Shown here piece after piece: positions 43,912-57,230 of a stretch of 64,000 bases of DNA. The notes under the pieces were generated by a model. The model did no database searches. It saw nothing but the letters and a program-made list of their open reading frames with translations, and was not told the DNA's origin. This DNA comes from Beijerinckiaceae bacterium (GTDB lineage Bacteria; Pseudomonadota; Alphaproteobacteria; Rhizobiales; Beijerinckiaceae): contig WSYC01000008.1 in assembly GCA_009773635.1 (NCBI GenBank), forward strand, positions 20,645 to 84,644, written 5' to 3'. Positions within the stretch are counted from its first letter, which is position 1; every line of letters begins with the position of its first letter. The position numbers and the translations under genes were made by a program.

Positions 43912-44030
43912 GAATTGGCTTACCATTACCGCTCGATCTGACAAACTGGCAGCAGAAGATCGGTATGCTCACGGCCCCGATCGCCATCCGGCCCGGACGC
44001 CGGGAAGAACCAGAGCAAGGGAGCAGCGCC

Positions 44031-45398
44031 ATGAATGTGCATTCAAAGGCGGGCACGGCCGCCGGTGCCAAGCTGACCGTTGAAGCCAAGCTGAGCTACA
44101 TGACCGGCTTCGGCAATTCCTTCGAGACCGAAGCCCTGCCGGATGCGCTGCCGGTGGGCCGCAATTCGCCGCAGAAGTGCAATTACGGGCTTTATGCCGA
44201 GCAGCTCTCCGGCTCGCCCTTCACCGCGCCGCGCTCCACGAACGAGCGGTCATGGCTCTATCGCATTGCGCCGGGCGTGAAGCACCAGGCACGCTACACC
44301 AGGACGGACCCCGGCCTGATCCGCACGGCACCGAACCGTGAGGAGAGCGACCTGCCGATCGGGCAGATGCGCTGGATGCCGATTCCCATTCCGCAGGAAA
44401 AGCTCAATTTCCGCACCGGGCTCCACACCATGATCACGGCGGGCGATGCCGAGGGGCAGGCTGGCATGGCCGCGCATATCGCGCTGGTCACGGAATCCAT
44501 GGTCGACGAATATTTCTTCAATTCCGACGGCGAGCTGATGGTGATCGCGCAGCAGGGCAATTTGCGCTTCTGCACGGAGTTCGGCATCATCGAGATCGAG
44601 CCGGGAGAAGTCTGCGTCATCCCGCGCGGCGTGATCTTCCGCTGCGAGCTGGTGGATGGCCCGGCGCGCGCCTATGTCTGCGAGAATTACGGCGGCGCGC
44701 TGACGCTGCCCGAACGCGGTCCGATCGGCGCGAACTGCCTTGCCAATGCCCGCGACTTCAAGGCCCCGGTGGCGGCCTACGAGGATATCCAGCGCCCCGG
44801 CAAGCTCTACGTCAAATGGTGCGGCGAGATGTTCGTGACCGAACTTCTCGCCTCGCCGCTCGATGTCATCGCCTGGCACGGCAACTACTACCCCTACAAA
44901 TATGACCTCAGGCATTATTCGCCCGTCGGTGCGATCGCCTTCGACCACCCGGACCCCTCGATCTTCACGGTGCTGACATCGCCCTCGGGCGAGGTCGGGA
45001 CGGCGAACATCGATTTCGTGATCTTTCCTGAGCGCTGGATGGTGGCGGAGAACACCTTCCGCCCGCCGTGGTATCACCGCAATATCATGAGCGAGTTCAT
45101 GGGGCTGATCTACGGCGTCTATGACGCCAAGCCCGAGGGCTTCGTGCCGGGCGGGATGAGCCTGCACAACATGATGCTGCCGCACGGGCCGGATGCGCCG
45201 GCTTTCGAGAAGGCCTCGAGCGAGCCGATGGTGCCGCACAAGCAGGTTGGCACCATGGCGTTCATGCTGGAAACACGGCTGCCGCAGCGGCTCACCGCCT
45301 ATGCCTCGACCTTGAAGGCGATCGACGAGAAGTATCTCGATTGCTGGGGCGGGCTGAAGCGCCGGTTTGATCCGACAAGCAAGACACCGAAGTGGTGA
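44031..45398 (+). CDS. hmgA: Homogentisate 1,2-dioxygenase
   Basis: Opens the ring of homogentisate in tyrosine and phenylalanine breakdown to give maleylacetoacetate. The 455-residue enzyme has [19 protein letters not shown] at the N-terminus and the iron site in [18 protein letters not shown] (His and Glu ligands six residues apart) with the later MLPHGPD histidine. [14 protein letters not shown] is also typical. The frame opens at 43899, but ATG 44031 with AAGGGAG upstream gives the family length. The other tyrosine-pathway genes are not adjacent; a small FAH-family gene is 12 kb away. Confidence 0.97.
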
Positions 45399-45415
45399 TC
45401 GTGCCGAACTGAAAG

Positions 45416-45442
45416 AAGGCCGGCATTGCAGCCGGCCGTTTT
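45416..45442. terminator. Bidirectional terminator between hmgA and the TadG-like gene
   Basis: GGCCGGC (45418-45424) / GCCGGCC (45431-45437) with an ATTGCA loop is flanked by GTTTTC on the plus side and by a T-rich TTCTTTC on the minus side. It lies between convergent stops at 45398 and 45462. Confidence 0.8.
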
Positions 45443-45461
45443 CAGGGACGGACGATGTGGT

Positions 45462-46937
45462 TCACTTGCTCAGGCGCAGCTCGGCGATGATGCTGCCGAT
45501 CTTCGAGAACGCCGTGAGGAACTGCTCGGCATTCTTGGCGTCGAAGAACTGTCCCTTGGTATGCAGGGCGCAATCCCGCAGCATGGTCTTGGTCGCCAGA
45601 TCGTCCACCGCGAAGGCGACGGAGAAAATCTGGATATTGCTGGCCTTGTCGGCCGCGATATTGGCGCAGATTTGCTTGGTGAGCGTGTTGGCCTGCGCGC
45701 CGTTGTTGCCGTTGTGCTTGGGATAAGTTGCCGAGCGCGTGTTGAGGCCGTCGGTCATCAGGACGAGATACTTGCGTACCGGCTCGGATTCCGTTGAAGT
45801 CGCGCCCTCGAACGGGGCTTGCGACGACAGTGTCCGCCAGCCCCAGAGCAAGCCCGCCGGGATATAGGTCTCGCCGTTCGGATTGAGATCCTTGATCGCC
45901 TTCTTCACCTTGGTGAGGTTGGATGTCAGCTCGACAAGCGGTGCCCCGCATCCGGTATCCATCAGGCCGGGGATGCGTGTGCCGTAGTTGCCGTCCTGCG
46001 TATCGAGCGGGCTGTTGCGCGAGCCAACGCAGCCATGCCACACATGCTTGGCACCTTCCTGCATCGCGCATTTCTCGACCTGCGGTCCGTAAACATTGTC
46101 GCAGACATTCGCGGAATACGCCGGCTTCGGCGAACTGCCGCCGCAGCTATAGGGCACGCCGTCATTGTAACACGTGCCGGGCGGTGAGCCGGGGGTCGCC
46201 GGATAGTTCACAACGCGGCAATTGGTCTTGCCGGTAACGGGGTTTTCCTTCCAGCACACTTTCCTGGAGGGGTCCTGATAGTCGTCCGGCACCGAGAGCC
46301 AGGATTTCGTGCGATTTCCGAGGCCAACGTTGACATAATTCGAAAACGGCACGATCGAGAATTTCAGCTGGTCGGGCTTGGTCGAGAGCTTGCCCAGATT
46401 CTGGACGAGATCGGTCGAGGCTTTCTTCAGCGTATCGATTTTCCAGCCGGTCATCGAGTAGGTTGTATCCAGAACCAGTGCGATTTCCGTATTGGACGAA
46501 ATCGTGCCGACGGCTTCGGCCAGAACATCCATCTTGACCTTGTCGAGGCCAAAGAGCCCGCCGAACATGGTCTTGACCTCGGCATTCGCCTTCACGCGAT
46601 AACCGTAGTTCGCACCTTCCCGTGTGATATTTTCCGGGTTGAACGAAACCTGCGCGCGGCCTGCGAGGTTGCCGGTATTGCTTTCGAATACGGCCTTCGC
46701 GACCTGTTCGCGCTCACTTGGCGTGCCGATGGTCCGGGCTGCCGCCAGCGCTGCCGCATCTGCCGCTGCGTAGATCTCGGCGCGGGTCTGCGTCGCGCGG
46801 GAATAGTCCACCGCCAGCCCGGTGACGCCGATCAGCGAAACCAACCCGATACCGAGCAGAGTCACGAAACTTCCGCGCTCATCGGTGTTGAAGGCGAGCA
46901 GCGACTTCTTCAGGCTCAGAAATGTTTTCAGGCGCAT
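45462..46937 (-). CDS. TadG-like pilus assembly protein with VWA domain and cysteine-rich insert
   Basis: A 491-residue single-pass membrane protein. The N-terminal FNTDERGSFVTLLGIGLVSL is a TadE/TadG-type helix with the E in the mature-start region. A von Willebrand A domain follows with a MIDAS-like DTTYSMTG (near residue 157) and LMTDGLNTR. Between these lies an insert of about 150 residues with at least ten cysteines (for example VCWKEN, GTCYNDGVPYSC, VCDNVYG, EKCAMQ), implying disulfide bonding outside the cytoplasm. No other tad genes are in the window, so it may be an orphan surface protein rather than part of a pilus system. Confidence 0.85.
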   Translation of the reverse strand: MRLKTFLSLKKSLLAFNTDERGSFVTLLGIGLVSLIGVTGLAVDYSRATQTRAEIYAAADAAALAAARTIGTPSEREQVAKAVFESNTGNLAGRAQVSFNPENITREGANYGYRVKANAEVKTMFGGLFGLDKVKMDVLAEAVGTISSNTEIALVLDTTYSMTGWKIDTLKKASTDLVQNLGKLSTKPDQLKFSIVPFSNYVNVGLGNRTKSWLSVPDDYQDPSRKVCWKENPVTGKTNCRVVNYPATPGSPPGTCYNDGVPYSCGGSSPKPAYSANVCDNVYGPQVEKCAMQEGAKHVWHGCVGSRNSPLDTQDGNYGTRIPGLMDTGCGAPLVELTSNLTKVKKAIKDLNPNGETYIPAGLLWGWRTLSSQAPFEGATSTESEPVRKYLVLMTDGLNTRSATYPKHNGNNGAQANTLTKQICANIAADKASNIQIFSVAFAVDDLATKTMLRDCALHTKGQFFDAKNAEQFLTAFSKIGSIIAELRLSK

Positions 46938-47090
46938 GGCGTGTTCCCGGATGATCCAGCTGATGCGTTCGGCATCGACGGGGCAAGATACTCCCGGGAC
47001 AGGCTATAAAAGGTTGACGAGGCCAGTTTTGCTTCAAAAATCAAGACTTAAGGTTATCACGACGTTCAGGAAGAACCAGAGCAAGGCGGG

Positions 47091-49034
47091 TTAGCGGGCT
47101 TTTTCAAAGCCCACGCGGAGGAGATCTGCGCCGCAAGTGCCCAACCGGGCTTCGAAGGCCGCCAGCGCTTTTGGCTGACGCGGCGCCCGCAGCACCGCAA
47201 AATCATAATGTTCGGATGCGAGCGGGATAAAACCGAGGCCCTGCTCCCGCGCAACCGGCTCGATCGTCACGCCCCAATCGGCGCGATGCTGCGCGATGCT
47301 GGCCGCGACGGCATTGTGCGAGCGTGGCTGGTTCCAGTATCCCGCCGGACGCGCCCCGCCGAGAAGCTGATCGATCAGCGTCCGCGTGCCTGCGCCCTGG
47401 TTGCGATTGACCATGATGCAGGCGGGATCGGCCAGCGCCGCGGCAACCGCCGCGTCCGGCGTCTTGCCCTCGAAGCGGGCGTCACCGCGACGGAACACGA
47501 GGCCCTGCATCCGCCGCCAGCCCGGGATGAGCCGCATCGCCCCGGTCAGGAACGGGGCATTGTAGATGCCGCTGGCCGGATCGATGAGGTGGATCGGCGC
47601 GATGTCGCATTCCCCGCGCTTGAGCGCCGAAAGCCCGCCGAGCGAGCCGATCGCCAGCGTCCGCGCCGAGATGCCGTCATCAACGAGCGCGCCGATGATG
47701 ACATCAAGCCCGGTGCAATGGCTGCCCATGATCACGAGATCGGGCACGCGGATGTGCGGTGTGAACAGGCGCACGTCCACGCGCGCGCCGGCCGGCAGTC
47801 CTTCGGCCAGCGCATCAACCCGGATGAACCCGTCGGCCTGGCTGAACGCGGTAACGGCGCCCGATCCCTTGCCGACCGGATGCGCGACCAGCCCCGCCTC
47901 GCCTTGCGAAAGCGCGACCATCACGAATTCGGTCCGGCCAAGCTCCGATTGAACGGCGACCGGCAGCTGCGCAGCAATCTCGCGCTCCTCCCGTTCCGGC
48001 TGCCCGGCCAGAATGCGCAGGACGGGGGCAACGATATCGTGGAATGTGAACATCGCCGAGGTCGGAAACCCCGGCAGGATGACCACCGGCTTGCCCTCGC
48101 ACACGGCGAGGCAGAGCGGTTTGCCCGGTTTGAGCGCGACGCCATGCACGACAATGCCGGGCGCGCCGAGCTGGCTGACGATGCGGTAGGTGAGATCCCC
48201 GGCGCCCTTGGAAGTGCCGCCGGACAGGATGACGCCATCGGCCTCGGCCATGGCCCTGCCGAGCGCGGTGTCCAGCTGCTCCCGATCATCGGGGATCGCG
48301 CCAAAGCGCAGGGGTGTGCAGCCGTTCTCCTCCAGCGCGGCCGCAACGATCGGCCCGTTCGAATCATAGACCGCCGCCGGCCTCAGCGGCGCGCCGACCG
48401 GAACGAGCTCGTCGCCAGTCGAGATCACCGCGATGCGCGGCTTGCGCCAGACCGGCGCACTGGCAAGCCCGACAGCGGCGAGCATGCCAATTTCCCGCGA
48501 GCCGATCAGGGTGCCCCGGTGCAGCAGCACCTGGCCGCAGGCGATATCCGACCCAGCAAAAGCCATGTTCTGGCCGGGGCTGAGCGCCCGCTGCACCACG
48601 ATCGCGTTTTCTCCCTCGGGTTCGGAGTGCTCGATCATGACAATCGCATCCGCGCCGCGCGGCATCGGGCCACCGGTCGAGATCGGTGTCGCCGTGCCCG
48701 GCATGACCGTAAGCTCGGGCGAATACCCGCAGGTGATCGTCTCGTTATTCAGAATCAACCGTTTCGGCGCTGCGCTGGACGCGCCCGCTAGATCCGCCGC
48801 CCGGGCGGCAAAGCCGTCAACGACGGACCGATCGAAGGCCGGCGCATCCACGCCGGCGGCGACATCCTCGGCGAGTACGCGCCCGACGAGTTCGGTGATG
48901 TCGACATGCTCGATGCCAAGAGGGCGCGGGACGAGCGCCGCCCGGAACAGCCGGATAGCCTCGTCGCGCGAGACAACCGAGAGGAACTGCTCCTGCTCGA
49001 TACCGGCGCGACCGGGGTTTGGCGCTTCGCTCAT
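47091..49034 (-). CDS. MoeA-type molybdopterin molybdenumtransferase fused to a periplasmic-binding-protein-like domain
   Basis: A 647-residue two-part cytoplasmic protein. Residues 1 to about 420 are MoeA-like, which inserts the metal into adenylylated molybdopterin: FDRSVVDGFAARA, GADAIVMIEHSE, PGQNMAFAGSDIACG, AVISTGDELVPVG, SGGTSKGAGDLT and LPGFPTSAMF. The last two deviate from the usual GGVSxGxxD and PGNPVS. From about 430 onward (IMGSHCTGLDVIIGALVDDG, NRNQGAGTRTLIDQL, SHNAVAASIAQHRADWG) is a type found fused to MoeA and HTH proteins and resembling PBP ligand-binding domains. Last gene of a three-gene operon; its ATG overlaps the preceding stop. Confidence 0.92.
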   Translation of the reverse strand: MSEAPNPGRAGIEQEQFLSVVSRDEAIRLFRAALVPRPLGIEHVDITELVGRVLAEDVAAGVDAPAFDRSVVDGFAARAADLAGASSAAPKRLILNNETITCGYSPELTVMPGTATPISTGGPMPRGADAIVMIEHSEPEGENAIVVQRALSPGQNMAFAGSDIACGQVLLHRGTLIGSREIGMLAAVGLASAPVWRKPRIAVISTGDELVPVGAPLRPAAVYDSNGPIVAAALEENGCTPLRFGAIPDDREQLDTALGRAMAEADGVILSGGTSKGAGDLTYRIVSQLGAPGIVVHGVALKPGKPLCLAVCEGKPVVILPGFPTSAMFTFHDIVAPVLRILAGQPEREEREIAAQLPVAVQSELGRTEFVMVALSQGEAGLVAHPVGKGSGAVTAFSQADGFIRVDALAEGLPAGARVDVRLFTPHIRVPDLVIMGSHCTGLDVIIGALVDDGISARTLAIGSLGGLSALKRGECDIAPIHLIDPASGIYNAPFLTGAMRLIPGWRRMQGLVFRRGDARFEGKTPDAAVAAALADPACIMVNRNQGAGTRTLIDQLLGGARPAGYWNQPRSHNAVAASIAQHRADWGVTIEPVAREQGLGFIPLASEHYDFAVLRAPRQPKALAAFEARLGTCGADLLRVGFEKAR

Positions 49035-50110
49035 GGCGCTGCCTCGTTGATATCATCGGGAAGCGGGCAAGGGCAGGACAAGGGAATTGCAGCCAGCATG
49101 GTTCCCTCCCTGAAGCCCTCGCATTCCGGCGGCACGAGCGCGACGAACCCGGCCTCCGCCAAGGCCGTCAGCGTGATCTCGCCGGTGCCAAGCGGAAGAT
49201 AGCCTTCCGGCACGGCCTTGAGCAAGACAACCTCGCTCATGCCGACAACGGACACGATCTTGCGTGCGAGGGGGCGCGACACCATCGCCGTTTCGCGTGC
49301 GCTCAACCGGTCAAGCAGCGGCAGAATGAGCGCGATGGTGGCGGCAACCATGGCGTCAAAGCGGCGTGGCAGCCAAAGGATCGGCGTTCCCGATGCTCCA
49401 GCATCAATATGCGCGGTTTCACCGGGATTCAGCGCCAACCCGCGCTCGGCGCCCTCCGACCACGCAAGCCCGAGATCGACGCTGCCAAGAGCGGACGCGT
49501 TCTCGAGATGGCAGCCCCGCGCCCTCAGGAACCGCGCCAGCCAATCCTGCTCCGGCATGGCGAGATCAGGATCGGCGAGATCGGGATTGGCAAGATCGGG
49601 ATTGGCAAGATCGGGCATGGCAATTCGAGGTCGGCGGACAGCCACAGCCTTGATCCCCGCCAGCGCGAGGGCGAGGCTCAGGTTCGACGTGATACGGGTG
49701 CCGGCGTCTGCCAGAACCGCGCCTGCCTCAACATCGTGCCCGGCAAGCCGCACCGATTCCCCCGGCGCGACGCCGATCGAAATTGCGTGGAAGGGGCCGG
49801 AATCGTCCAATCCCTCGGACGGAAGAACCGCGTCGCAGCCATCCGGCAGGACATCGCCCGGGCGAACGCTCCCGGGCAACTCCGTGAGAATGACCGGCGT
49901 ATGCACCGTCGCCCCGACCAGATCAGCGGCACGAACCGCGAGCCCGGCCCGCAAGGCAACGGACCGCGTCGGCAAGGCGTGGGGTGCCGGAACTGGCCGC
50001 GCGAGGACAAGCCCCGCCGCCGCGCCGAGCGGAATGGCCTCGGGCTCGACCGGGTGCAAGGCGGCCATCGTCGGCGCGAGCATATCGTGCACCGAGAGCC
50101 GCGCTCTCAT
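49031..50110 (-). CDS. Degenerate MoeA-like molybdopterin-binding protein
   Basis: A 359-residue protein that keeps the general MoeA arrangement (LPTRSVALRAGLAVRAADLV, LPDGCDAVLPSEG, GESVRLAGHDVEAGAVLADAG, then a C-terminal domain with LAEAGFVALVPPECEG). It lacks the MoeA catalytic landmarks: the DGxA loop, STGDEL, GGVSxGxxD and PGNPxS are absent or changed, the last to LPRRFDAM. A run of near-identical pentapeptides (PDLAN) sits where STGDEL would follow. It may bind molybdopterin without metal insertion or act as a partner of the fused MoeA. Coupled to both neighbours by ATGA overlaps. Confidence 0.8.
   Translation of the reverse strand: MRARLSVHDMLAPTMAALHPVEPEAIPLGAAAGLVLARPVPAPHALPTRSVALRAGLAVRAADLVGATVHTPVILTELPGSVRPGDVLPDGCDAVLPSEGLDDSGPFHAISIGVAPGESVRLAGHDVEAGAVLADAGTRITSNLSLALALAGIKAVAVRRPRIAMPDLANPDLANPDLADPDLAMPEQDWLARFLRARGCHLENASALGSVDLGLAWSEGAERGLALNPGETAHIDAGASGTPILWLPRRFDAMVAATIALILPLLDRLSARETAMVSRPLARKIVSVVGMSEVVLLKAVPEGYLPLGTGEITLTALAEAGFVALVPPECEGFREGTMLAAIPLSCPCPLPDDINEAAP
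49561..49620. repeat. Four 15-bp in-frame tandem repeats inside the degenerate MoeA-like gene
   Basis: Four consecutive 15-bp units of the form CGAGATCGGGATTGG, differing at a few positions, encode the pentapeptide PDLAN/PDLAD/PDLAM on the minus strand. The repeat keeps the reading frame. It is a minisatellite prone to length change, in a predicted loop after the strand VAVRRPRIAM. Confidence 0.85.
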
Positions 50111-51027
50111 CGGTTGAGCCGGACACGCCCGGCCTCCGAGACATCGTAGCCACCCAGGAGCGTAGCCTGCCGGACGAATTCCGGCTTGCGCATCAAGGCA
50201 AACAGCGCCTGCGGCCCGGGTTCGAAATAGCTGCGCCGACGCATGGCGAGATCAAAATGCTCCCAGACAACCGGCACGAAGGTGAGGCCATGCGCCAGCG
50301 CCACCGAGCGCGTCGCGATGCCGCAATCGATCTCGCCCGCGCGGATGCCGAGCGCAAGATCATGCCCGGTGGGGTAGGTCGTGTCCATCCTCGTGCGATC
50401 ATCCGCAGGGGTGGCGGCGCCGATGTGTTGCTCAATGGATAAGCCTTGCCGCGCCATCAGCGATTCCAGCAGGAGCTGCGCGCCAGCGCCCTTCTGGCGC
50501 AGTCCGATGCGGGCACCGGACCGAACGGCGGAACCTAATCCGTCGATCCCGAGCGGATTACCAGCAGCGAGCATCAACCCCTGCTCGCGGCGCGCGAACG
50601 CGATCAGCACGACGTCGTGAAAGCCCTGATCCGCCAGAATGGCGGCTTCGTTGGCATCATCCGCGCCGTCGGCGTCGTGAAGATGGACCGCGGCCAGCAT
50701 GACCTCATTACCCGCCAGATGAGTCAGCCCGGCCTCGGACCCCTCGGACAGCAGCGCCAGGCCAGCGCCGGATCGACGCACGGTCCACTCCAGCAGGAGG
50801 TCGTGACTGCCGCCGACGATAGCGGGCGGCGCGAGCGCCGCAAAACCGGCCGGCGCGGTCAGGCCCGCCGCGACCCAGCGATCGAGCGCCGCACGCGGGA
50901 AGAGCCATTTCCCCGTGACTTTCGAGCAGGGAACAGCGCCATTCGCCACGAGATCGTAGAGTTTGCGCTCCTTGATGTGGAGATAGGCGGCCGCCTGCTC
51001 GGTGCTGAGGTAGGAAATGTCCTGCAT
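50107..51027 (-). CDS. Helix-turn-helix regulator fused to a PBP-like ligand-binding domain
   Basis: A 306-residue cytoplasmic protein. Residues 5-50 (YLSTEQAAAYLHIKERKLYD, then GAVPCSKVTGKWLFPRAALD) form an excisionase/MerR-like DNA-binding domain. The rest (GGSHDLLLEWTVRRSGAGLA, GLRQKGAGAQLLLESLM, YPTGHDLALGIRAGEIDCGI, WEHFDLAMRR) resembles the C-terminal domain of the fused MoeA two genes downstream. A one-component sensor of an oxyanion or cofactor intermediate is the likely role, as in molybdate and tungstate regulators. The frame extends to 51657, but ATG 51027 begins at the DNA-binding domain. Divergent from tupB by 94 bp. Confidence 0.87.
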   Translation of the reverse strand: MQDISYLSTEQAAAYLHIKERKLYDLVANGAVPCSKVTGKWLFPRAALDRWVAAGLTAPAGFAALAPPAIVGGSHDLLLEWTVRRSGAGLALLSEGSEAGLTHLAGNEVMLAAVHLHDADGADDANEAAILADQGFHDVVLIAFARREQGLMLAAGNPLGIDGLGSAVRSGARIGLRQKGAGAQLLLESLMARQGLSIEQHIGAATPADDRTRMDTTYPTGHDLALGIRAGEIDCGIATRSVALAHGLTFVPVVWEHFDLAMRRRSYFEPGPQALFALMRKPEFVRQATLLGGYDVSEAGRVRLNR

Positions 51028-51030
51028 GAG

Positions 51031-51048
51031 TATGCATGTTAGCGCATA
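51031..51048. promoter_or_regulatory. Inverted repeat in the divergent promoter of the tungstate locus
   Basis: TATGC (51031-51035) and GCATA (51044-51048) with an 8-bp spacer lie immediately before the regulator start and about 75 bp before tupB. A candidate plus-strand promoter follows, with TTGCCA near 51059 and CATAAC near 51081. The regulator encoded next to it is the obvious candidate ligand-responsive binder; this is inference. Confidence 0.4.
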
Positions 51049-51121
51049 AATTCCGTACTTGCCAAGATATGATCGCAATTCATAACAATCGCACCCGTAT
51101 GCAGGATGTGATGGGAGCAGG

Positions 51122-51832
51122 ATGGAACCGGTAGACGCCTTTGCCAACGCCTTCCGGTTGGTGCGCGAGCTTGATCCGGCGTTTACCGGTATTGTCGCCC
51201 TGTCCCTGCGGGTCACGGGCAGTGCGGTACTGATCGCGGCGCTGATCGGTTTGCCGCTTGGAGCGTTGCTCGCGTTGTCGCGCTTTCCGGGGCGCAGCGG
51301 GGTCATCATTCTCGTCAGCGCGCTGATGGGGCTTCCGCCGGTTGTGGCCGGGCTTGCCATCTTCCTGCTTCTGTCGCGGGCGGGGCCGCTTGGCGGTTTC
51401 GGCTGGCTGTTCTCGCCGACGGCGATGATTCTCGCGCAGGCCGTTCTCGTCCTGCCGATCGTGATCGCGCTGACACGGCAGGTAATCGAGGATCTCTGGG
51501 CGGAATACCGCGAGCACCTGATGTCGATCGGAATGACGGGTATCCGTGCCATTCCGACGCTGTTGCGGGAAGCGCGTTTCTCGCTCGCAACGGCGCTGCT
51601 GGCCGGGTTCGGGCGTGCCAGCGCGGAGGTGGGCGCGGTGCTGATCGTCGGCGGCAATATCGCCGGCTATACCCGCACGATGACGACCGCGATCGCACTC
51701 GAGACCTCGAAGGGTGATCTGCCGCTGGCGCTTGGGCTGGGGCTGGTTCTGATCGCGCTGACCTTGCTCATCAACGCGCTCGCCTATGGCGTGAGCCGCA
51801 TTGGCCTGCGCACCGCTGGGCAGGGCGCATGA
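51122..51832 (+). CDS. tupB: Tungstate ABC transporter permease (TupB-like)
   Basis: A 236-residue inner-membrane permease with five to six helices and the ABC-permease EAA-like loop (EYREHLMSIGMTGIRAIPTL). The segment GLPPVVAGLAIFLLLSRAGP is characteristic of TupB/WtpB-type oxyanion permeases. Assignment to tungstate rather than molybdate rests on the accompanying TupA-type binding protein. It is the first gene of a plus-strand tupBCA operon and overlaps tupC by 4 bp. Confidence 0.88.
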   Translation: MEPVDAFANAFRLVRELDPAFTGIVALSLRVTGSAVLIAALIGLPLGALLALSRFPGRSGVIILVSALMGLPPVVAGLAIFLLLSRAGPLGGFGWLFSPTAMILAQAVLVLPIVIALTRQVIEDLWAEYREHLMSIGMTGIRAIPTLLREARFSLATALLAGFGRASAEVGAVLIVGGNIAGYTRTMTTAIALETSKGDLPLALGLGLVLIALTLLINALAYGVSRIGLRTAGQGA

Positions 51833-52548
51833 CAGGCTCCGCCTCCATCCTGCCGTTGCGCGTGGATAGCCTCGGCTTTTCTGCCGATAGTCGGACGCTG
51901 CTTGCTGATGTCTCCTTCACCCTGCCGGCTGGTGGGATCACAGCAGTCATTGGCCCGAACGGTGCCGGCAAATCGCTGTTGCTGCGCCTCTGTCACGGGC
52001 TGCTGATGCCAGGCGCAGGGCGCGTCGAATGGGCCAGAGATCGTGCCGGACGCAAACGCCACGCCATGGTGTTCCAGCGTCCGGTCATGCTGCGGCGTTC
52101 GGCCGAAGCCAACCTCGAGCACGCTCTCGCCGCCGCCGGCTGGGCCAGCGTGGAGCGGCGCGAGCGGGTTCTGGCCGCGCTCGCCCGCTTCGGCCTTCAA
52201 CCTCTCGCTGATAGCCCGGCCCGCCTGCTCTCCGGCGGCGAGCAGCAACGGCTCGCCATCGCACGGGCCTGGGCGCTGGCACCGGAGGTGATCTTTCTTG
52301 ATGAGCCCACATCCCACCTCGATCCCGGTGCAACACGTCAGATCGAGACGATGCTTTTTGCGCTGGCGGCGGATGGCGTAACGCTGGTGATGGCGACGCA
52401 TGATCTCGGCCAGGCACGACGGCTCGCGCATCGCGTTTTGTTTCTCAACCGGGGCCAACTTGTCGAGGATGCGCCGGCCCCGATGTTTTTCGAAAGCCCG
52501 GCAACCGCCGAAGCGAAAGCCTTCGTTGCCGGAGATTTGCTCTGGTAG
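51829..52548 (+). CDS. tupC: Tungstate ABC transporter ATP-binding protein (TupC-like)
   Basis: A 239-residue ATPase: Walker A GPNGAGKSLLLRL, Q-loop MVFQRPVMLRRSAEANLEHA (the RPVMLRRS pattern is typical of TupC), signature [14 protein letters not shown], Walker B VIFLDEPTSHLD and H-loop ATHD. It lacks the C-terminal molybdopterin-binding (TOBE) domain of ModC, which supports TupC over ModC. Coupled to tupB by ATGA. Confidence 0.9.
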   Translation: MTGSASILPLRVDSLGFSADSRTLLADVSFTLPAGGITAVIGPNGAGKSLLLRLCHGLLMPGAGRVEWARDRAGRKRHAMVFQRPVMLRRSAEANLEHALAAAGWASVERRERVLAALARFGLQPLADSPARLLSGGEQQRLAIARAWALAPEVIFLDEPTSHLDPGATRQIETMLFALAADGVTLVMATHDLGQARRLAHRVLFLNRGQLVEDAPAPMFFESPATAEAKAFVAGDLLW

Positions 52549-52571
52549 CCCCTCAAGCCATGGAGTCTGTC

Positions 52572-53423
52572 ATGATCCGCCGTCGTTTCTTGTTTGCCGC
52601 AGCCCTGCTGGTGCCTTCGAGCCTCGCGCAGGCGCAGACCGCCGCACCGATTTCACCGCCCAAGGCGCCCTATATCGTGGTGTCCTCGACGACCTCGACG
52701 CAGGATTCGGGCCTGTTCAATCATCTCCTGCCGCTGTTCAAGGCGAAGACCGGCATTGACGTCCGCGTCGTCTCGCAGGGCACCGGACAGGCGCTCGATA
52801 CCGGCAAGCGCGGCGATGCGGATGTCGTCTTCGTCCACGCCAAAGCGCAGGAGGAGAATTTCGTCGCCGGGGGGTTCGGTGTCGAGCGCAGGCCGGTGAT
52901 GTACAATGATTTCGTGCTGATCGGACCGAAGAGCGATCCCGCCGGGATCAAGGGTACGAAGAATATCGCGGCGGCGCTGAAAGCGGTGCAGGAAAAGCAG
53001 GCTGCTTTCGTTTCGCGCGGCGATCGCTCGGGCACGCATTCGGCGGAACTGGCGCTCTGGAAACTCGCCGGGATCGAGCTCAATGCGGTCAAGGGTAGCT
53101 GGTATCGCGAGATCGGGCAGGGTATGGGCGCGGCGCTCAATACGGCGGGGGCCATGTCGGCCTATGTGCTTGCCGATCGCGGCACATGGCTCAGCTTCAA
53201 GAACCGGGGTGATCTCGGAATCGTTGTCGAGGGCGACAAGCGTCTCTTCAACCAATACGGCGTCATCCTGGTGGACCCGGCCAAGCATCCGCACGTCAAG
53301 AAGGCGGAAGGGCAAGCCTTCATTGACTGGCTCGTCGGGCCGGAGGGGCAGAAAGCCATTTCGGACTACAAGATCGGTGGCGAGCAGCTGTTTTTTGCGA
53401 ATGCCGGGCAGCCGGGGGTGTAA
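52572..53423 (+). CDS. tupA: Tungstate-binding periplasmic protein (TupA-like)
   Basis: A 283-residue exported solute-binding protein with a Sec signal peptide (MIRRRFLFAAALLVPSSLAQ, then A-QT). The mature N-terminus has VVSSTTSTQDSGLFNHLLPL, the TTST-type oxyanion-binding signature of TupA, and later GDRSGTHSAEL and GMGAALNTAGAMSAYVLADR. TupA family proteins bind tungstate far more tightly than molybdate; this is family knowledge, not shown here. ATG 52572 has GGAG 6 bp upstream; the ATG at 52560 is an alternative. Confidence 0.92.
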   Translation: MIRRRFLFAAALLVPSSLAQAQTAAPISPPKAPYIVVSSTTSTQDSGLFNHLLPLFKAKTGIDVRVVSQGTGQALDTGKRGDADVVFVHAKAQEENFVAGGFGVERRPVMYNDFVLIGPKSDPAGIKGTKNIAAALKAVQEKQAAFVSRGDRSGTHSAELALWKLAGIELNAVKGSWYREIGQGMGAALNTAGAMSAYVLADRGTWLSFKNRGDLGIVVEGDKRLFNQYGVILVDPAKHPHVKKAEGQAFIDWLVGPEGQKAISDYKIGGEQLFFANAGQPGV

Positions 53424-53432
53424 CTACCTCCT

Positions 53433-53876
53433 CTAGCGCTCCTTCACCGCGTTCAGGATAAAGCTGGTACGCGTTCCGGCGACGCCCGGCACGACCTGGA
53501 TCTGGCCGAGCATCGTGGCCGAAAAATCGGCCATGTCGCGCGCGGCGATCTCGATCATGATGTCGCTATCACCGGAGACGATCCAGCAGCCGACGACGCC
53601 CGGGATGGCTTCGAGCGCCCGCGCGACATCGATAGCCGGGACATGCGCCTGCCGCTGGACCGCGGCAAAGGCCCGCATCCCTTCGCCCATTGCGGTGGCG
53701 TCAAGCCGCGTAGCATAGCCCCGGATGATTCCGGTTGCCTCCATCTGCCGGATGCGGCGGGAGATCGCCGAATGCGACAGCGGCACAATTTCAGCGAGTT
53801 CGAGGTTGCTCAGGCGCGCATTGGCCCGCAGAGCCTCGAGAATCTGGCGATCGAAAACGTCGAGAACAGGCTTCAT
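53433..53876 (-). CDS. Lrp/AsnC family transcriptional regulator
   Basis: A 147-residue feast/famine regulator. The N-terminal winged helix (LDVFDRQILEALRANARLSN, ELAEIVPLSHSAISRRIRQM) is followed by an RAM ligand-binding domain (AIPGVVGCWIVSGDSDIMIE). Lrp proteins form octamers that respond to amino acids. It is divergent from the PLP-enzyme gene at 54051 across 174 bp that includes AT-rich stretches (GCAATAATTTTGATAT, TTATTGCAAAAACTG), so it probably controls that gene, as in the known MdeR/MdeA pair. The ATG at 53876 is used; the TTG two codons earlier is less likely. Confidence 0.92.
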   Translation of the reverse strand: MKPVLDVFDRQILEALRANARLSNLELAEIVPLSHSAISRRIRQMEATGIIRGYATRLDATAMGEGMRAFAAVQRQAHVPAIDVARALEAIPGVVGCWIVSGDSDIMIEIAARDMADFSATMLGQIQVVPGVAGTRTSFILNAVKER

Positions 53877-54050
53877 GTGCAAACTTTGTGCGCGAAGGCA
53901 GGGCAGGGCGACCTGCTAATACAAAATATAGCGCATGGGCGCAGTCATCTGCAATAATTTTGATATTTCACTTCATCAGCGCGCACTTATTGCAAAAACT
54001 GAAAATATTGCTGATCCTCCGGAGGCTCAGGCATCAAGGGAGAGCGCATC

Positions 54051-55322
54051 ATGGCCAAGGATTTCCGCGACACCCACATCGGCGCGCATAAGCTGCATCC
54101 GGAAACGCTGATGCTGGGGTATGGTTTTGACCCCGCACTCTCCGAAGGCTCGGTGAAGCCGCCGGTCTTCCTGACCTCGACCTTCTGTTTCCCGAGCGCC
54201 GATGCCGGCCGAGAATTCTTTGATATCGCGGCGGGTCGGGCCACCGGCAAGAATGATATCGACGGCGGACTGGTCTATTCCCGCTTCAACCACCCGAACG
54301 CGCAGATCGTCGAGGAGCGGCTCGCCTTGTTCGAGGGGGCGGATGCCGGCGCGGTATTTTCATCCGGCATGGCGGCGATTGCCACCATCCTGTTCGCGCA
54401 TTGCCGACCGGGTGACATCATCCTGCACTCGCTGCCGCTCTATGGCGGCACGGATGCGATGCTGAACAAGGTGCTGCCAAATTTCGGTATCCGCGCGATG
54501 CCGATCGCCGACCCCAATGATCCCGAGGCGATGCGGGCTGCGGTGCGCGACGCTGAAGCCGCTGGCCGGCTGGCGATGATCTATCTCGAAACGCCGTCGA
54601 ACCCGCTGGCGACGCTGGCCGATATCGGCCTCGCCTCCGACATGGCCGGCGAAAGCGCGACCCGGCAGAAGCATCGCCCGCTGGTGGTGGTCGACAATAC
54701 CCTGCTCGGGCCGGTGTTCCAGAACGCGCTCGCTGCGGGTGCTGACCTCTCGCTCTACTCACTCACCAAATACGTCGGCGGGCATTCCGATCTGATCGCC
54801 GGCGGGGTGCTTGGCCGGCGCGAACCAATGACGCCGGTGCGGGCGTTGCGCGGGCTGCTTGGCGGCAATCTCGATCCACACTCATGCTGGATGCTGTCGC
54901 GTTCGCTCGAAACCGTAACGTTGCGCATGGAACGCGCGGCTGCCAATGCGCTGACGATTGCCCGCTGGCTCAGCGCGCACAAGGAGGTGCAGGCCGTGCA
55001 TTTTCCGGCGCTGGCGCAGGCCGGCAGTGTCCAGCACCGCATCTACCTCAAGCAGTGCAAGGGCGCGGGCTCGCTGATGTCCTTCGATGTCGGCACCCGC
55101 GAACGGGCGTTCCGCGTGCTCGACCGGCTGCGCATCGTCAAGCTCGCGGTGAGCCTTGGCGGTACGGAATCGCTGGTCTGCCACCCCGCGACCACCGTTC
55201 AATCCGGAGTTCCGGTCGCGGCACGCCTCGCGATGGGGGTAACGGACGGGTTGATCCGGCTGTCGGTGGGCATTGAACACGAAGCGGACCTGATCGCCGA
55301 TCTCGAGCAGGCGCTGGCCTAA
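54051..55322 (+). CDS. PLP-dependent Cys/Met metabolism enzyme (cystathionine gamma-synthase family)
   Basis: A 423-residue fold-type I PLP enzyme with the PLP lysine Lys240 in YSLTKYVGGHSD, YSRFNHPNAQIVEERLA, VFSSGMAAIATILF, LETPSNPLATLADI and the C-terminal LAVSLGGTESLVCHPATT. It could be a gamma-lyase, gamma-synthase or sulfhydrylase. The tyrosine-loop reads LYGGTDAML: methionine gamma-lyases have a Cys at the second Gly position, so it is not a canonical MGL. It is about 20 residues longer than average, mostly at the N-terminus and in a TRQKHRP insert. Control by the divergent Lrp-type gene is likely. Confidence 0.9.
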   Translation: MAKDFRDTHIGAHKLHPETLMLGYGFDPALSEGSVKPPVFLTSTFCFPSADAGREFFDIAAGRATGKNDIDGGLVYSRFNHPNAQIVEERLALFEGADAGAVFSSGMAAIATILFAHCRPGDIILHSLPLYGGTDAMLNKVLPNFGIRAMPIADPNDPEAMRAAVRDAEAAGRLAMIYLETPSNPLATLADIGLASDMAGESATRQKHRPLVVVDNTLLGPVFQNALAAGADLSLYSLTKYVGGHSDLIAGGVLGRREPMTPVRALRGLLGGNLDPHSCWMLSRSLETVTLRMERAAANALTIARWLSAHKEVQAVHFPALAQAGSVQHRIYLKQCKGAGSLMSFDVGTRERAFRVLDRLRIVKLAVSLGGTESLVCHPATTVQSGVPVAARLAMGVTDGLIRLSVGIEHEADLIADLEQALA

Positions 55323-56653
55323 GTCGCCACCAGCCGCGTCAGGCTGGTGAGCGGCTGGTGATCAATATCTGCGATCACACCCCAGAGTGCCTCCGCCTTC
55401 TCCGGTCCCAGCAGCGAAGCCGCCTTGGCGCGGATTTTTGCCAGCCTGATATCCGGGGCAATCGGTTGATCGAGGTCATGGCGGGCGGCCAGTACAGCGC
55501 CTGAGCGTAAGCGAACCTCGACACGCGCCTCGGTATCCGGCAGCGCCGGGTCCGTTTCCACCTGCACGCGGTCGCGCAGCGCGATCAACGCGAGGTCGGC
55601 GCACACGGCATCGGTATAGGTGGTGAGCGCGCCGGTATCGCACCCCGCGAGCGCCATCGCGGCGGTCAGGCGATAGCTGAACTTCGCTTCGAGCCCGGTG
55701 GCGGGGCTTGCGATATTGCACACCTTCAGCCAGCGTGGATGTGTGGTGACGCGGACGGAGGCGATATCCTCCACCACAAACCCATGCTCAAAGCGCAGCG
55801 CGTTCAGCGCCTCGATCGCGGCGTGAAGGCCGTGGCAGCAGGCGTGGAACTTGTGCTGCACGGTTTCGAACCAGAAGACCTCGCCGAGCCCGGCGAGAAT
55901 GGGCGCGGGATCGCCGTTTTCACCGGCGTGGGTTTCACCGAACCCCTGTTCGCATTCGAGACCATCCGGACGGGAGATAAACCCCGCTTTGGCCAGCAGT
56001 GCTGCTTCCACGCCGTTCGCGGCGGCCATGCCGGCATGGTAGGGTTTGCCCATGGTGCCGAACTGCGATTTGAGCCCGGAGGCACGCGTCGAGGCGATGC
56101 CCATCGCGTGTGCCATCGCGGTCGGATCGAGGCCGGCGAGCCGCGCCGCCGCCATCGTCGCGCCGAAAGTGCCTGATGTCGCGGTCTGGTGAAACCCGTG
56201 CTGGTAATGCTGGCGGCCGAGCCAGGTACCGATCCGACAGGAAATCTCGACGCCGACAAGCGCCGCATCGAGGAATTCACCCCCCGTCGCGCCGGTCTTC
56301 TCGGCCATAGCGAGCGCCGCCGGGATGATCGCGACGCTGGGGTGGCCGATATGCGCGAAATGCGTGTCGTCGTAATCAAGCGCATGCGAAGCCGTGCCAT
56401 TGGCGAGTGCCGCCGCGCGGGCAGGTGCCTTGCCGTTCTGGCCGATGACCGTGGCTTCCGCCTTGCCGCCCTCGTCCTCTACACGGTCACGCACGATGCG
56501 GGCAACCGGCTCATCCCGCCCGGCGATGGCGACCGCGCACCAATCGAGAAGCGAGAGCCGCATCACCTGACGCGCGCTTTCCGGCAGAGGCGCACCGCGG
56601 GTGCCGGCAAAGGCAATGAGGGCATCGGTAAGCGGCGCGGCGGAGGCGGGCAT
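55319..56653 (-). CDS. MmgE/PrpD family protein
   Basis: A 444-residue member of the 2-methylcitrate dehydratase superfamily (also cis-aconitate decarboxylase and iminodisuccinate epimerase). Family features: HALDYDDTHFAHIGHPSVAI, HQTATSGTFGATMAAARLAG, SQFGTMGKPYHAGMAAANGV and VQHKFHACCHGLH. In the methylcitrate cycle PrpD dehydrates 2-methylcitrate, but many family members act on other carboxylic acids. The frame opens at 56842; ATG 56653 with AGGGAAA upstream is preferred. Its stop overlaps the stop of the convergent PLP-enzyme gene. Confidence 0.88.
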   Translation of the reverse strand: MPASAAPLTDALIAFAGTRGAPLPESARQVMRLSLLDWCAVAIAGRDEPVARIVRDRVEDEGGKAEATVIGQNGKAPARAAALANGTASHALDYDDTHFAHIGHPSVAIIPAALAMAEKTGATGGEFLDAALVGVEISCRIGTWLGRQHYQHGFHQTATSGTFGATMAAARLAGLDPTAMAHAMGIASTRASGLKSQFGTMGKPYHAGMAAANGVEAALLAKAGFISRPDGLECEQGFGETHAGENGDPAPILAGLGEVFWFETVQHKFHACCHGLHAAIEALNALRFEHGFVVEDIASVRVTTHPRWLKVCNIASPATGLEAKFSYRLTAAMALAGCDTGALTTYTDAVCADLALIALRDRVQVETDPALPDTEARVEVRLRSGAVLAARHDLDQPIAPDIRLAKIRAKAASLLGPEKAEALWGVIADIDHQPLTSLTRLVAT

Positions 56654-56810
56654 GGGCGTTTCCCTGTTGAGCCCCAGTCGTGACATATCCGCCACCGACC
56701 GCAAAGAGGGTGGACAGGCATCCTGATGAGAAATCCGCCGCACTTTCGGATGGACTTCGGGCGCATCGCCAGTAGACACTGGGCGCATCAAACCGAAGCG
56801 GAGATCCCGG

Positions 56811-57230
56811 ATGAAAGCGCGCGCAAAACTCATCGAAGGCATGGCCTTTCTCGGGGAGGCCGGCAGCGGTCACACCGTGGTGATGGATGGTTCGCCCGAA
56901 TACGGCGGGCGCAACATCGGCATCCGCCCGATGGAATTGCTGCTGGTCGGGCTTGCCGGCTGCACCGCCTTCGATGTCGTCAATATCCTGCGCAAGGGGC
57001 GCGAGGATGTCGCGGATTGCGTCGTCGAAGTCTCGGCGACGCGCGCGGGCGATGACCCCAAGGTCTTCACCGCGATCCATCTCGACTATCTCGTGAAGGG
57101 CAAGGGTCTCTCGGAAGCCAAGGTCGAGCGGGCGATTGCGCTTTCGGCGGAGAAATACTGCTCGGCCTCGATCATGCTCGGCAAGACCGCCGAGATCACG
57201 CATGCCTGGAAAACCGTGTCGGAGGGCTGA
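56811..57230 (+). CDS. OsmC family peroxiredoxin-like protein
   Basis: A 139-residue protein of the OsmC/Ohr superfamily, close to the YhfA type. The two redox cysteines are Cys51 in GLAGCTAFDVVNIL and Cys117 in AEKYCSASIML. Members reduce organic hydroperoxides or handle sulfide-related thiols. The start ATG at 56811 encodes MKARAKLIEGM. The sulfurtransferase gene begins 3 bp after its stop, so the two are co-transcribed; a shared role in thiol or sulfane-sulfur chemistry is plausible. Confidence 0.91.
   Translation: MKARAKLIEGMAFLGEAGSGHTVVMDGSPEYGGRNIGIRPMELLLVGLAGCTAFDVVNILRKGREDVADCVVEVSATRAGDDPKVFTAIHLDYLVKGKGLSEAKVERAIALSAEKYCSASIMLGKTAEITHAWKTVSEG

What the first reader, a model, noticed from the sequence alone, without database searches (positions are those of the whole stretch)
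47091..53423. Self-contained tungstate uptake, sensing and cofactor-insertion module
tupBCA is divergent from an operon encoding an HTH-PBP regulator, a degenerate MoeA and a MoeA-PBP fusion. Every gene within each side is coupled by 4-bp overlaps except tupA. The combination suggests uptake of tungstate (or molybdate) feeding a specialised molybdopterin-metal insertion system controlled by the same ligand, separate from housekeeping MoeA. A target tungsto- or molybdoenzyme is not in the window.
Basis: partly seen in the sequence, partly recalled or inferred. Interest (0 to 1): 0.7.

Follow-up and report, generated by a model that had tools for sequence, protein, structure and literature searches.

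The report
Tungsten supply genes for formate dehydrogenases
Six neighbouring genes that probably bring tungstate into the cell, sense it and help load it into an enzyme cofactor; many relatives carry them near formate dehydrogenase genes, and they include a degraded copy of the loading enzyme that travels with a live one.

Summary
The genome has two other moeA genes: one beside moaC, and a mobB-moeA1 pair beside an fdhABC operon. In three relatives these and the window's module form one run. Clients are very probably tungsten FDHs: the genome's FDH1A and FdhA are closest to solved W enzymes, and TupA is in 68 of 69 order genomes with either FDH versus 9 of 81 without. The gene order matches the published Methylorubrum extorquens cluster; there MoeA1+MobB is essential for W loading, while MoeA3 and MoeA5 (by order and identity, MoeA-PBP and degMoeA) were dispensable at 30 uM tungstate. 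Least expected: degMoeA adjoins MoeA-PBP in every case checked (18/18, 16/16, 15/15; the first two samples share six genomes). Best reading: an accessory tungstate capture-and-transfer pair with a dead subunit, for scarce tungsten or exported FdhABC. Its biochemistry is untested.

The parts
47091..49034 (-). moeA-PBP: MoeA (domains I-IV) fused to a C-terminal PBP_like domain
   Evidence: PF03453, PF00994, PF03454, PF12727; NF011068 730 bits, above cut-off 534; most active-site residues kept
49031..50110 (-). degMoeA: conserved, catalytically degraded MoeA paralogue
   Evidence: MoeA_N only; alignment shows loss of the T100, E188 and K279 equivalents and of the STGDE motif; adjacent to MoeA-PBP in the cases checked
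50107..51027 (-). regulator: HTH_17 + PBP_like; no leader peptide seen by reading; probable cytosolic oxyanion sensor (inferred)
   Evidence: PBP motifs compared with MoeA-PBP; no PDB relative by sequence
51028..51121 (.). 94-bp divergent intergenic region; a promoter-like site on the - strand and an 8-bp inverted pair TCCTGCAT/ATGCAGGA whose left arm overlaps the regulator start; weak
51122..51832 (+). tupB, ABC permease
   Evidence: NF038017 241 bits (above cut-off 100), TupB NF041773 160 bits (below cut-off 320)
51829..52548 (+). tupC, ABC ATPase
   Evidence: PF00005
52560..53423 (+). tupA, periplasmic tungstate-binding protein (inferred); STTS and SRGDRSGTH motifs
   Evidence: TupA NF041772 234 bits, below cut-off 400; ligand positions of D. 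alaskensis TupA from passages of PMC5517513

Best explanation
The window holds the uptake/sensing and accessory-insertion half of a tungsten supply route for formate dehydrogenases. TupABC imports tungstate (inferred from homology; M. extorquens TupBCA has been shown to support W-dependent FDH activity in E. coli). The HTH-PBP protein binds tungstate in the cytosol and controls tupBCA and its own operon (inferred). The main insertion of W into the pterin is done by MoeA1 with MobB, which in this genome lie beside fdhABC on another contig (shown genetically in M. extorquens, inferred here). MoeA-PBP and degMoeA, encoded by overlapping genes and not found apart in the Alphaproteobacteria checked, form an accessory pair: the PBP domain captures tungstate and hands it to the MoeA active site, and the dead MoeA is a structural or regulatory subunit. 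The pair would matter when tungsten is scarce or molybdate in excess, or for the exported FdhABC enzyme rather than FDH1. Uptake and FDH linkage are well supported; the pair's mechanism is inference.
For: Two extra moeA genes. C5 locus torD-fdhA-fdhB-fdhC-mobB-moeA1 with mobA and fdhD opposite; moeA1 carries IKPGR and the Ser-to-Ala change reported for W-selective MoeA1. FDH1A on C6 is closest to MeFDH1, a W enzyme (1279.7 bits; next other enzyme 531); FdhA is closest to 9VAP (1151 bits, next 294), listed as Shewanella FdhAB with Cys-W (PMC13397495 passages). One run of fdhABC-mobB-moeA1 / mobA-fdhD / tupACB / regulator-degMoeA-MoeA-PBP in L037, L038, L040. Order sample n=150: TupA in 68 of 69 genomes with FDH1A or FdhA and in 9 of 81 without; MoeA-PBP in 18, all with TupA; an FDH catalytic gene within 30 kb of MoeA-PBP in 10 of 18. 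degMoeA beside MoeA-PBP: 18/18, 16/16 in a phylum sample of 398, 15/15 among 20 named genomes. FdhA at least 73% identical to ours occurs in 14 genomes, all 14 with MoeA-PBP. Methylorubrum thiocyanatum (L142) has degMoeA-MoeA-PBP-mobB-moeA1 / regulator / tupBCA; its MoeA1 and degMoeA are 40.6% and 26.7% identical to E. coli MoeA, the same values as MoeA1 and MoeA5 in the paper.
Against: M. extorquens moeA3 and moeA5 deletions kept about 80% of MeFDH1 activity and most W (0.33 and 0.37 versus 0.48 mol/mol), as did some other dispensable deletions (moeA4, mobA-like), so no role is yet demonstrated. Bosea (3 of 3) and two of the five Bradyrhizobium examined have FDH1 and TupA without MoeA-PBP. 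Three of 18 MoeA-PBP genomes have neither FDH at the thresholds used (G027, G123, G137; G123 is 56% complete). MoeA-PBP is not associated with FDH1A itself (9 of 18 versus 50 of 132; Fisher p 0.44). TupA and TupB are below curated equivalog cut-offs. The associations are not corrected for phylogeny. The Azospirillum partner (L147) scores higher to the MoeA-PBP core than to the window's degMoeA (97 versus 66 bits), although 112 bits to another degMoeA. Both single-sequence structure models failed (mean pLDDT 35 and 33). E. coli, with its own MoeA, can make active MeFDH1 when tungstate uptake is provided (PMC13396061 passages), so a special insertase is not strictly needed.
Confidence: 0.6

Rival explanations
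1. MoeA-PBP is the principal tungstate insertase for the W-FDHs, and degMoeA is a decaying duplicate without function.
For: MoeA-PBP keeps most active-site residues; published co-occurrence with TupA (86%, same locus in 28%; PMC11733289 section 8 read).
Against: M. extorquens moeA3 is dispensable and moeA1/mobB essential at 30 uM W. degMoeA is too regularly kept (18/18, 16/16, 15/15) and in several genomes overlaps moeA-PBP by 4 bp, as here (L037, L045, L142, L143, L148, L151), which is not what decay gives.
Confidence: 0.15
2. MoeA-PBP and degMoeA are a tungstate buffer or co-sensor: the PBP domain holds cytosolic tungstate and the MoeA part docks on MoeA1/MobB or the regulator, without insertion by itself.
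For: The regulator and MoeA-PBP carry the only two PBP_like (PF12727) matches in this genome; dispensability for MeFDH1.
Against: D59, T100, D142, E188, D228, D259, K279 and S303 equivalents are kept in all 8 MoeA-PBP rows aligned, which suggests catalysis.
Confidence: 0.15
3. The module handles molybdate, not tungstate; the FDHs and the NarG/NasA-like enzymes of this genome are its Mo clients.
For: TupA-type proteins also bind molybdate, more weakly (PMC5517513 passages); the genome encodes NarG- and NasA-like enzymes (named by reading the sequence).
Against: TupA motifs; best solved relatives of FDH1A and FdhA are W enzymes; TupA tracks these FDHs.
Confidence: 0.1

Closest known systems
Methylorubrum extorquens moeA1-mobB-tupBCA tungsten maturation cluster (PMC13197769)
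   Same: tupBCA, and moeA genes that by gene order and identity match MoeA-PBP (MoeA3, p3048) and degMoeA (MoeA5, p3047); MoeA1 residue signature; W-FDH1 in the same genome
   Different: In the window's genome mobB-moeA1 lies beside an fdhABC operon on another contig; the regulator here has HTH_17 while that of M. thiocyanatum has a LysR-family HTH_1 on the same PBP_like domain. In the main-text parts read (Results parts 1 and 2 of 3, Discussion, section 15, passages) MoeA3 is not described as a PBP fusion, MoeA5 not as a dead paralogue, and the regulator is not mentioned; Fig. S12 and other supplements were not seen
Archaeal and bacterial MoeA-PBP (MoeA1 clade of PMC11733289; NF011068)
   Same: domain order; groups with chain 1UZ5 in the tree (92/85 support); co-occurs with TupA
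   Different: here always beside a dead MoeA in the genomes checked; the section read does not mention such a partner
TupABC tungstate transporter
   Same: TupA motifs and gene set; Methylorubrum thiocyanatum TupA 65% identical; M. extorquens PA1 TupBCA supports MeFDH1 in E. coli BL21 (PMC13396061 passages)
   Different: below NCBIfam equivalog cut-offs
TunR / ModE metal regulators (recalled; one search found no paper)
   Same: oxyanion-responsive control of uptake genes (inferred)
   Different: sensor is a PBP_like domain, apparently used in the cytosol

Membership tests
MoeA-PBP (NF011068) | full-length match above curated cut-off | tested here: met
   730 bits versus 534
MoeA-PBP (NF011068) | MoeA active-site residues present | tested here: met
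   D59, T100, D142, E188, D228, D259, K279, S303 kept; K275 and R350 equivalents changed (which residues matter is recalled)
Functional MoeA (degMoeA tested) | active-site residues T100, E188, K279 and STGDE motif | tested here: not met
   T100 and E188 lost in 11 of 11 degMoeA rows, K279 in 10 of 11, STGDE absent in 11 of 11 by reading; so not filed as an insertase
TupABC | TupA ligand residues: TTTS motif, R118, T124 (PMC5517513) | tested here: met
   STTS (first Thr is Ser), SRGDRSGTH keeps Arg and Thr, by reading; D170 and H59 not checked
TupABC | NCBIfam equivalog cut-offs | tested here: not met
   TupA 234/400, TupB 160/320; called TupABC-type, not a curated equivalog
TupABC | selective tungstate binding | not testable with these tools
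   needs ITC
W-selective MoeA1 (C5 gene, not in window) | KPGR Arg and Ser-to-Ala in pocket, neighbour mobB | tested here: met
   AIKPGRP and PGNPAA, mobB directly upstream
MeFDH1 (W-FDH1; C6 gene) | closest solved relative is MeFDH1 | tested here: met
   1279.7 bits versus 531 for the next other enzyme; fdh1B-like gene upstream; metal content not testable
Oxyanion-responsive regulator | DNA binding and metal response | not testable with these tools
   only HTH_17 + PBP_like domains shown

The most novel reading that the evidence does not exclude
Alphaproteobacteria use a two-subunit tungstate insertase made of a live MoeA carrying its own cytosolic tungstate-binding domain and an obligate dead MoeA partner. 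It is distinct from the MoeA1-MobB route and dedicated to the exported tungsten formate dehydrogenase FdhABC or to growth at trace tungsten, and it is controlled by a regulator that reuses the same binding domain.
Probability: 0.3. Interest if true: 0.72.

Novelty: new variant of a known kind. Interest (0 to 1): 0.55.

Why it matters
How cells choose tungsten over molybdenum at the insertion step is open, and oxygen-tolerant tungsten FDHs are wanted for CO2 reduction. The data connect uptake, sensing and two insertion routes to named FDHs. They identify two genes of a model methylotroph (MoeA3, MoeA5) as very probably the fusion and a conserved dead partner, and they suggest why deleting them at 30 uM tungstate could hide a function. 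They give a direct test: low tungsten, and FdhABC instead of FDH1.

Tried and rejected
Considered and rejected: degMoeA as random decay (too regularly kept); the module as the ordinary moeA (two others exist); a known riboswitch (no Rfam match at gathering threshold, 44000-57000). Structure prediction of degMoeA and of the regulator from single sequences gave useless models, so no fold search was run. A genome-contig search with the degMoeA alignment was impossible (no conserved stretch). The intergenic region gave only an 8-bp inverted pair that overlaps the start codon and was not pursued. Regulator papers: none found, both narrow term sets.
Full report
What is there. The six genes are confirmed with the coordinates given. 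Overlaps of 4 bp join moeA-PBP/degMoeA, degMoeA/regulator and tupB/tupC; tupA starts after an 11-bp gap behind tupC. Pfam and NCBIfam assign MoeA-PBP (NF011068, 730 bits, cut-off 534), a MoeA_N-only protein, HTH_17+PBP_like, and an ABC transporter whose TupA and TupB match the tungstate equivalogs but below their curated cut-offs. TupA carries STTS...SGL and SRGDRSGTH, the positions described for tungstate binding in D. alaskensis TupA (TTTS, R118, T124; passages of PMC5517513); D170 and H59 were not checked.

The rest of the genome. PF03453 gives four places: the two in the window, one on contig C6 in the order trpE-trpG-trpD-moaC-moeA-lexA (names from reading the sequence), and one on C5. 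The C5 locus reads DUF3306 protein, TorD/NarJ-type chaperone, fdhA, fdhB, fdhC, mobB, moeA1, with mobA and fdhD on the other strand. PF00384 gives seven places: NuoG-, NasA-, NarG-like and one other by reading, plus three FDHs. FDH1A (C6) matches chain 7vw6, the tungsten FDH of M. extorquens, at 1279.7 bits against 531 for the next other enzyme. A second relative on C8 scores 917 bits to the same enzyme. FdhA (C5) matches 9VAP at 1151 bits against 294 for the next; PMC13397495 lists Shewanella FdhAB as Cys-W and names 9VAP as its structure (passages). PF12727 occurs only in the two window proteins.

Linkage in relatives. I fetched 16 neighbourhoods of degMoeA hits. In L037, L038 and L040 the order is fdhA-fdhB-fdhC-mobB-moeA1, mobA-fdhD, tupA-tupC-tupB, then regulator-degMoeA-moeA-PBP in one run (the degMoeA ORFs of L038 and L040 are, and fdhB of L038 was not picked by the ORF filter). 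The best-hit filter found a regulator in 7 of the 16, tupA in 8, moeA1 in 9, mobB, fdhD and mobA in 8 each, MoeA-PBP in 15. In L048 the tup genes, regulator, moeA1, MoeA-PBP and degMoeA lie by an FDH1A gene. In the order sample of 150 genomes, MoeA-PBP is in 18, TupA in 77, FDH1A in 59, FdhA in 58. TupA is in 68 of the 69 genomes with either FDH and in 9 of the 81 without; all 58 FdhA genomes have TupA, 10 of them without FDH1A. MoeA-PBP genomes: 18 of 18 have TupA, 9 of 18 FDH1A (p 0.44), 15 of 18 FdhA. The FdhA proteins at least 73% identical to ours are in 14 genomes, all with MoeA-PBP, while the 44 other FdhA genomes include one with MoeA-PBP. An FDH catalytic gene lies within 30 kb of MoeA-PBP in 10 of 18 and tupA in 13 of 18; in the window's own genome no FDH gene does. 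Fisher values ignore phylogeny.

The dead partner. degMoeA lies within 3 kb of MoeA-PBP in 18 of 18 order genomes (positions; in G089 only a fragment at a contig start, in G137 only a C-terminal match). In a phylum sample of 398, MoeA-PBP is in 16 and a degMoeA-like gene is next to it in 16 of 16, at 111 to 702 bits (six genomes are shared with the order sample). Of 80 FDH1-bearing loci I took 20 named genomes: MoeA-PBP in 15, degMoeA in the same 15 (14 by PF03453, one cut at a contig end, L151), TupA in 19. In order genomes without MoeA-PBP I looked at the 13 loci held among the best degMoeA hits; 12 hold a TGDE motif as in ordinary MoeA, L031 does not; lower hits were not examined. In an alignment of 11 degMoeA rows the T100 and E188 equivalents are lost in 11, K279 in 10, and STGDE in all by reading; the window's copy also lacks most of domain III. 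All 8 MoeA-PBP rows keep D59, T100, D142, E188, D228, D259, K279 and S303. The tree puts degMoeA (100/100), MoeA-PBP (98/98) and MoeA1 (100/99) in three groups, with MoeA-PBP joined by chain 1UZ5 (92/85) and MoeA1 with E. coli MoeA; long branches limit deeper inference.

Link to published genetics. Methylorubrum thiocyanatum (L142) has degMoeA, MoeA-PBP, mobB, moeA1, then a divergent regulator and tupB-tupC-tupA. The paper's locus numbers put MoeA5, MoeA3, MobB, MoeA1 at p3047 to p3050 and name a moeA1-mobB-tupBCA cluster (PMC13197769; Results parts 1 and 2 of 3, Discussion and section 15 read, plus passages; supplements not seen). Identities to E. coli MoeA agree for MoeA1 (40.6 and 40.6) and MoeA5 (26.7 and 26.7); for MoeA3 36.3 in the paper against 38.1 here (MoeA part only). 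I therefore equate MoeA3 with MoeA-PBP and MoeA5 with degMoeA; M. extorquens itself was not fetched. There, moeA1, mobB and fdhD deletions abolish W-FDH1, while moeA3 and moeA5 deletions keep 41 and 40 of 50 U/mg and 0.33 and 0.37 of 0.48 W, at 30 uM tungstate.

Interpretation. Uptake and FDH linkage are strong; an essential insertase role for MoeA-PBP/degMoeA is not supported for FDH1 at high W. The regulator-type protein accompanies tup even where MoeA-PBP is missing: in three Bosea genomes a PBP_like ORF of about 300 aa lies about 2 kb from tupA. In M. thiocyanatum its HTH is of the LysR family (PF00126) on the same PBP_like domain. The accessory pair most likely works at low tungsten or for FdhABC; the second option is suggested by the tie between MoeA-PBP and one group of FdhA, but shared ancestry could also produce that tie.

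What is known already. PMC11733289 (section 8 read, other passages) reported MoeA-PBP with TupA in 86% of cases and in one locus in 28%, and proposed tungsten insertion. PMC13197769 defined the MoeA1-MobB route. PMC13396061 (passages) showed that ModABC or TupBCA lets E. coli make active MeFDH1, without a special MoeA. My searches listed no paper that I recognised as describing the dead MoeA partner or the PBP-type regulator; only open-licence PMC papers were searchable and most listed papers were not opened.

Noticed in passing
L005:4260-7426 (own contig C5): fdhA appears split by a frame break: the Tat-like leader and the 4Fe-4S/catalytic part are in different frames; the same-genus genome G082 has an open frame of 1000 aa. 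Assembly error or real, not resolved.
   Followed up: partly
L005:3415-4260: TorD/NarJ-like FDH chaperone (PF02613) with an N-terminal YdaS/Cro-type HTH match (PF15943): a chaperone that may also bind DNA.
   Followed up: no
L142:12619-13743: The Methylorubrum thiocyanatum tup-linked regulator has a LysR-family HTH on the PBP_like domain instead of HTH_17: the DNA-binding domain differs while the sensor is kept.
   Followed up: partly
L041:11836-12684, also L042 and L044: tupA lies between degMoeA and the regulator with no tupB or tupC found beside it; each of these genomes has a second tupA elsewhere.
   Followed up: no
Order sample: TupA tracks FdhABC (58 of 58) as tightly as FDH1 (58 of 59), also in 10 genomes without FDH1, which predicts that FdhABC of this order is a tungsten enzyme.
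   Followed up: partly
G000:C8:6381-9050 (L055): A second MeFDH1-like FDH alpha subunit, 45% identical to FDH1A; metal unknown.
   Followed up: no
window 53433-53882 (-) and 45462-46937 (-): Flanking genes are an Lrp/AsnC-type regulator and a VWA/Tad-type protein by reading; no evident link to tungsten.
   Followed up: no
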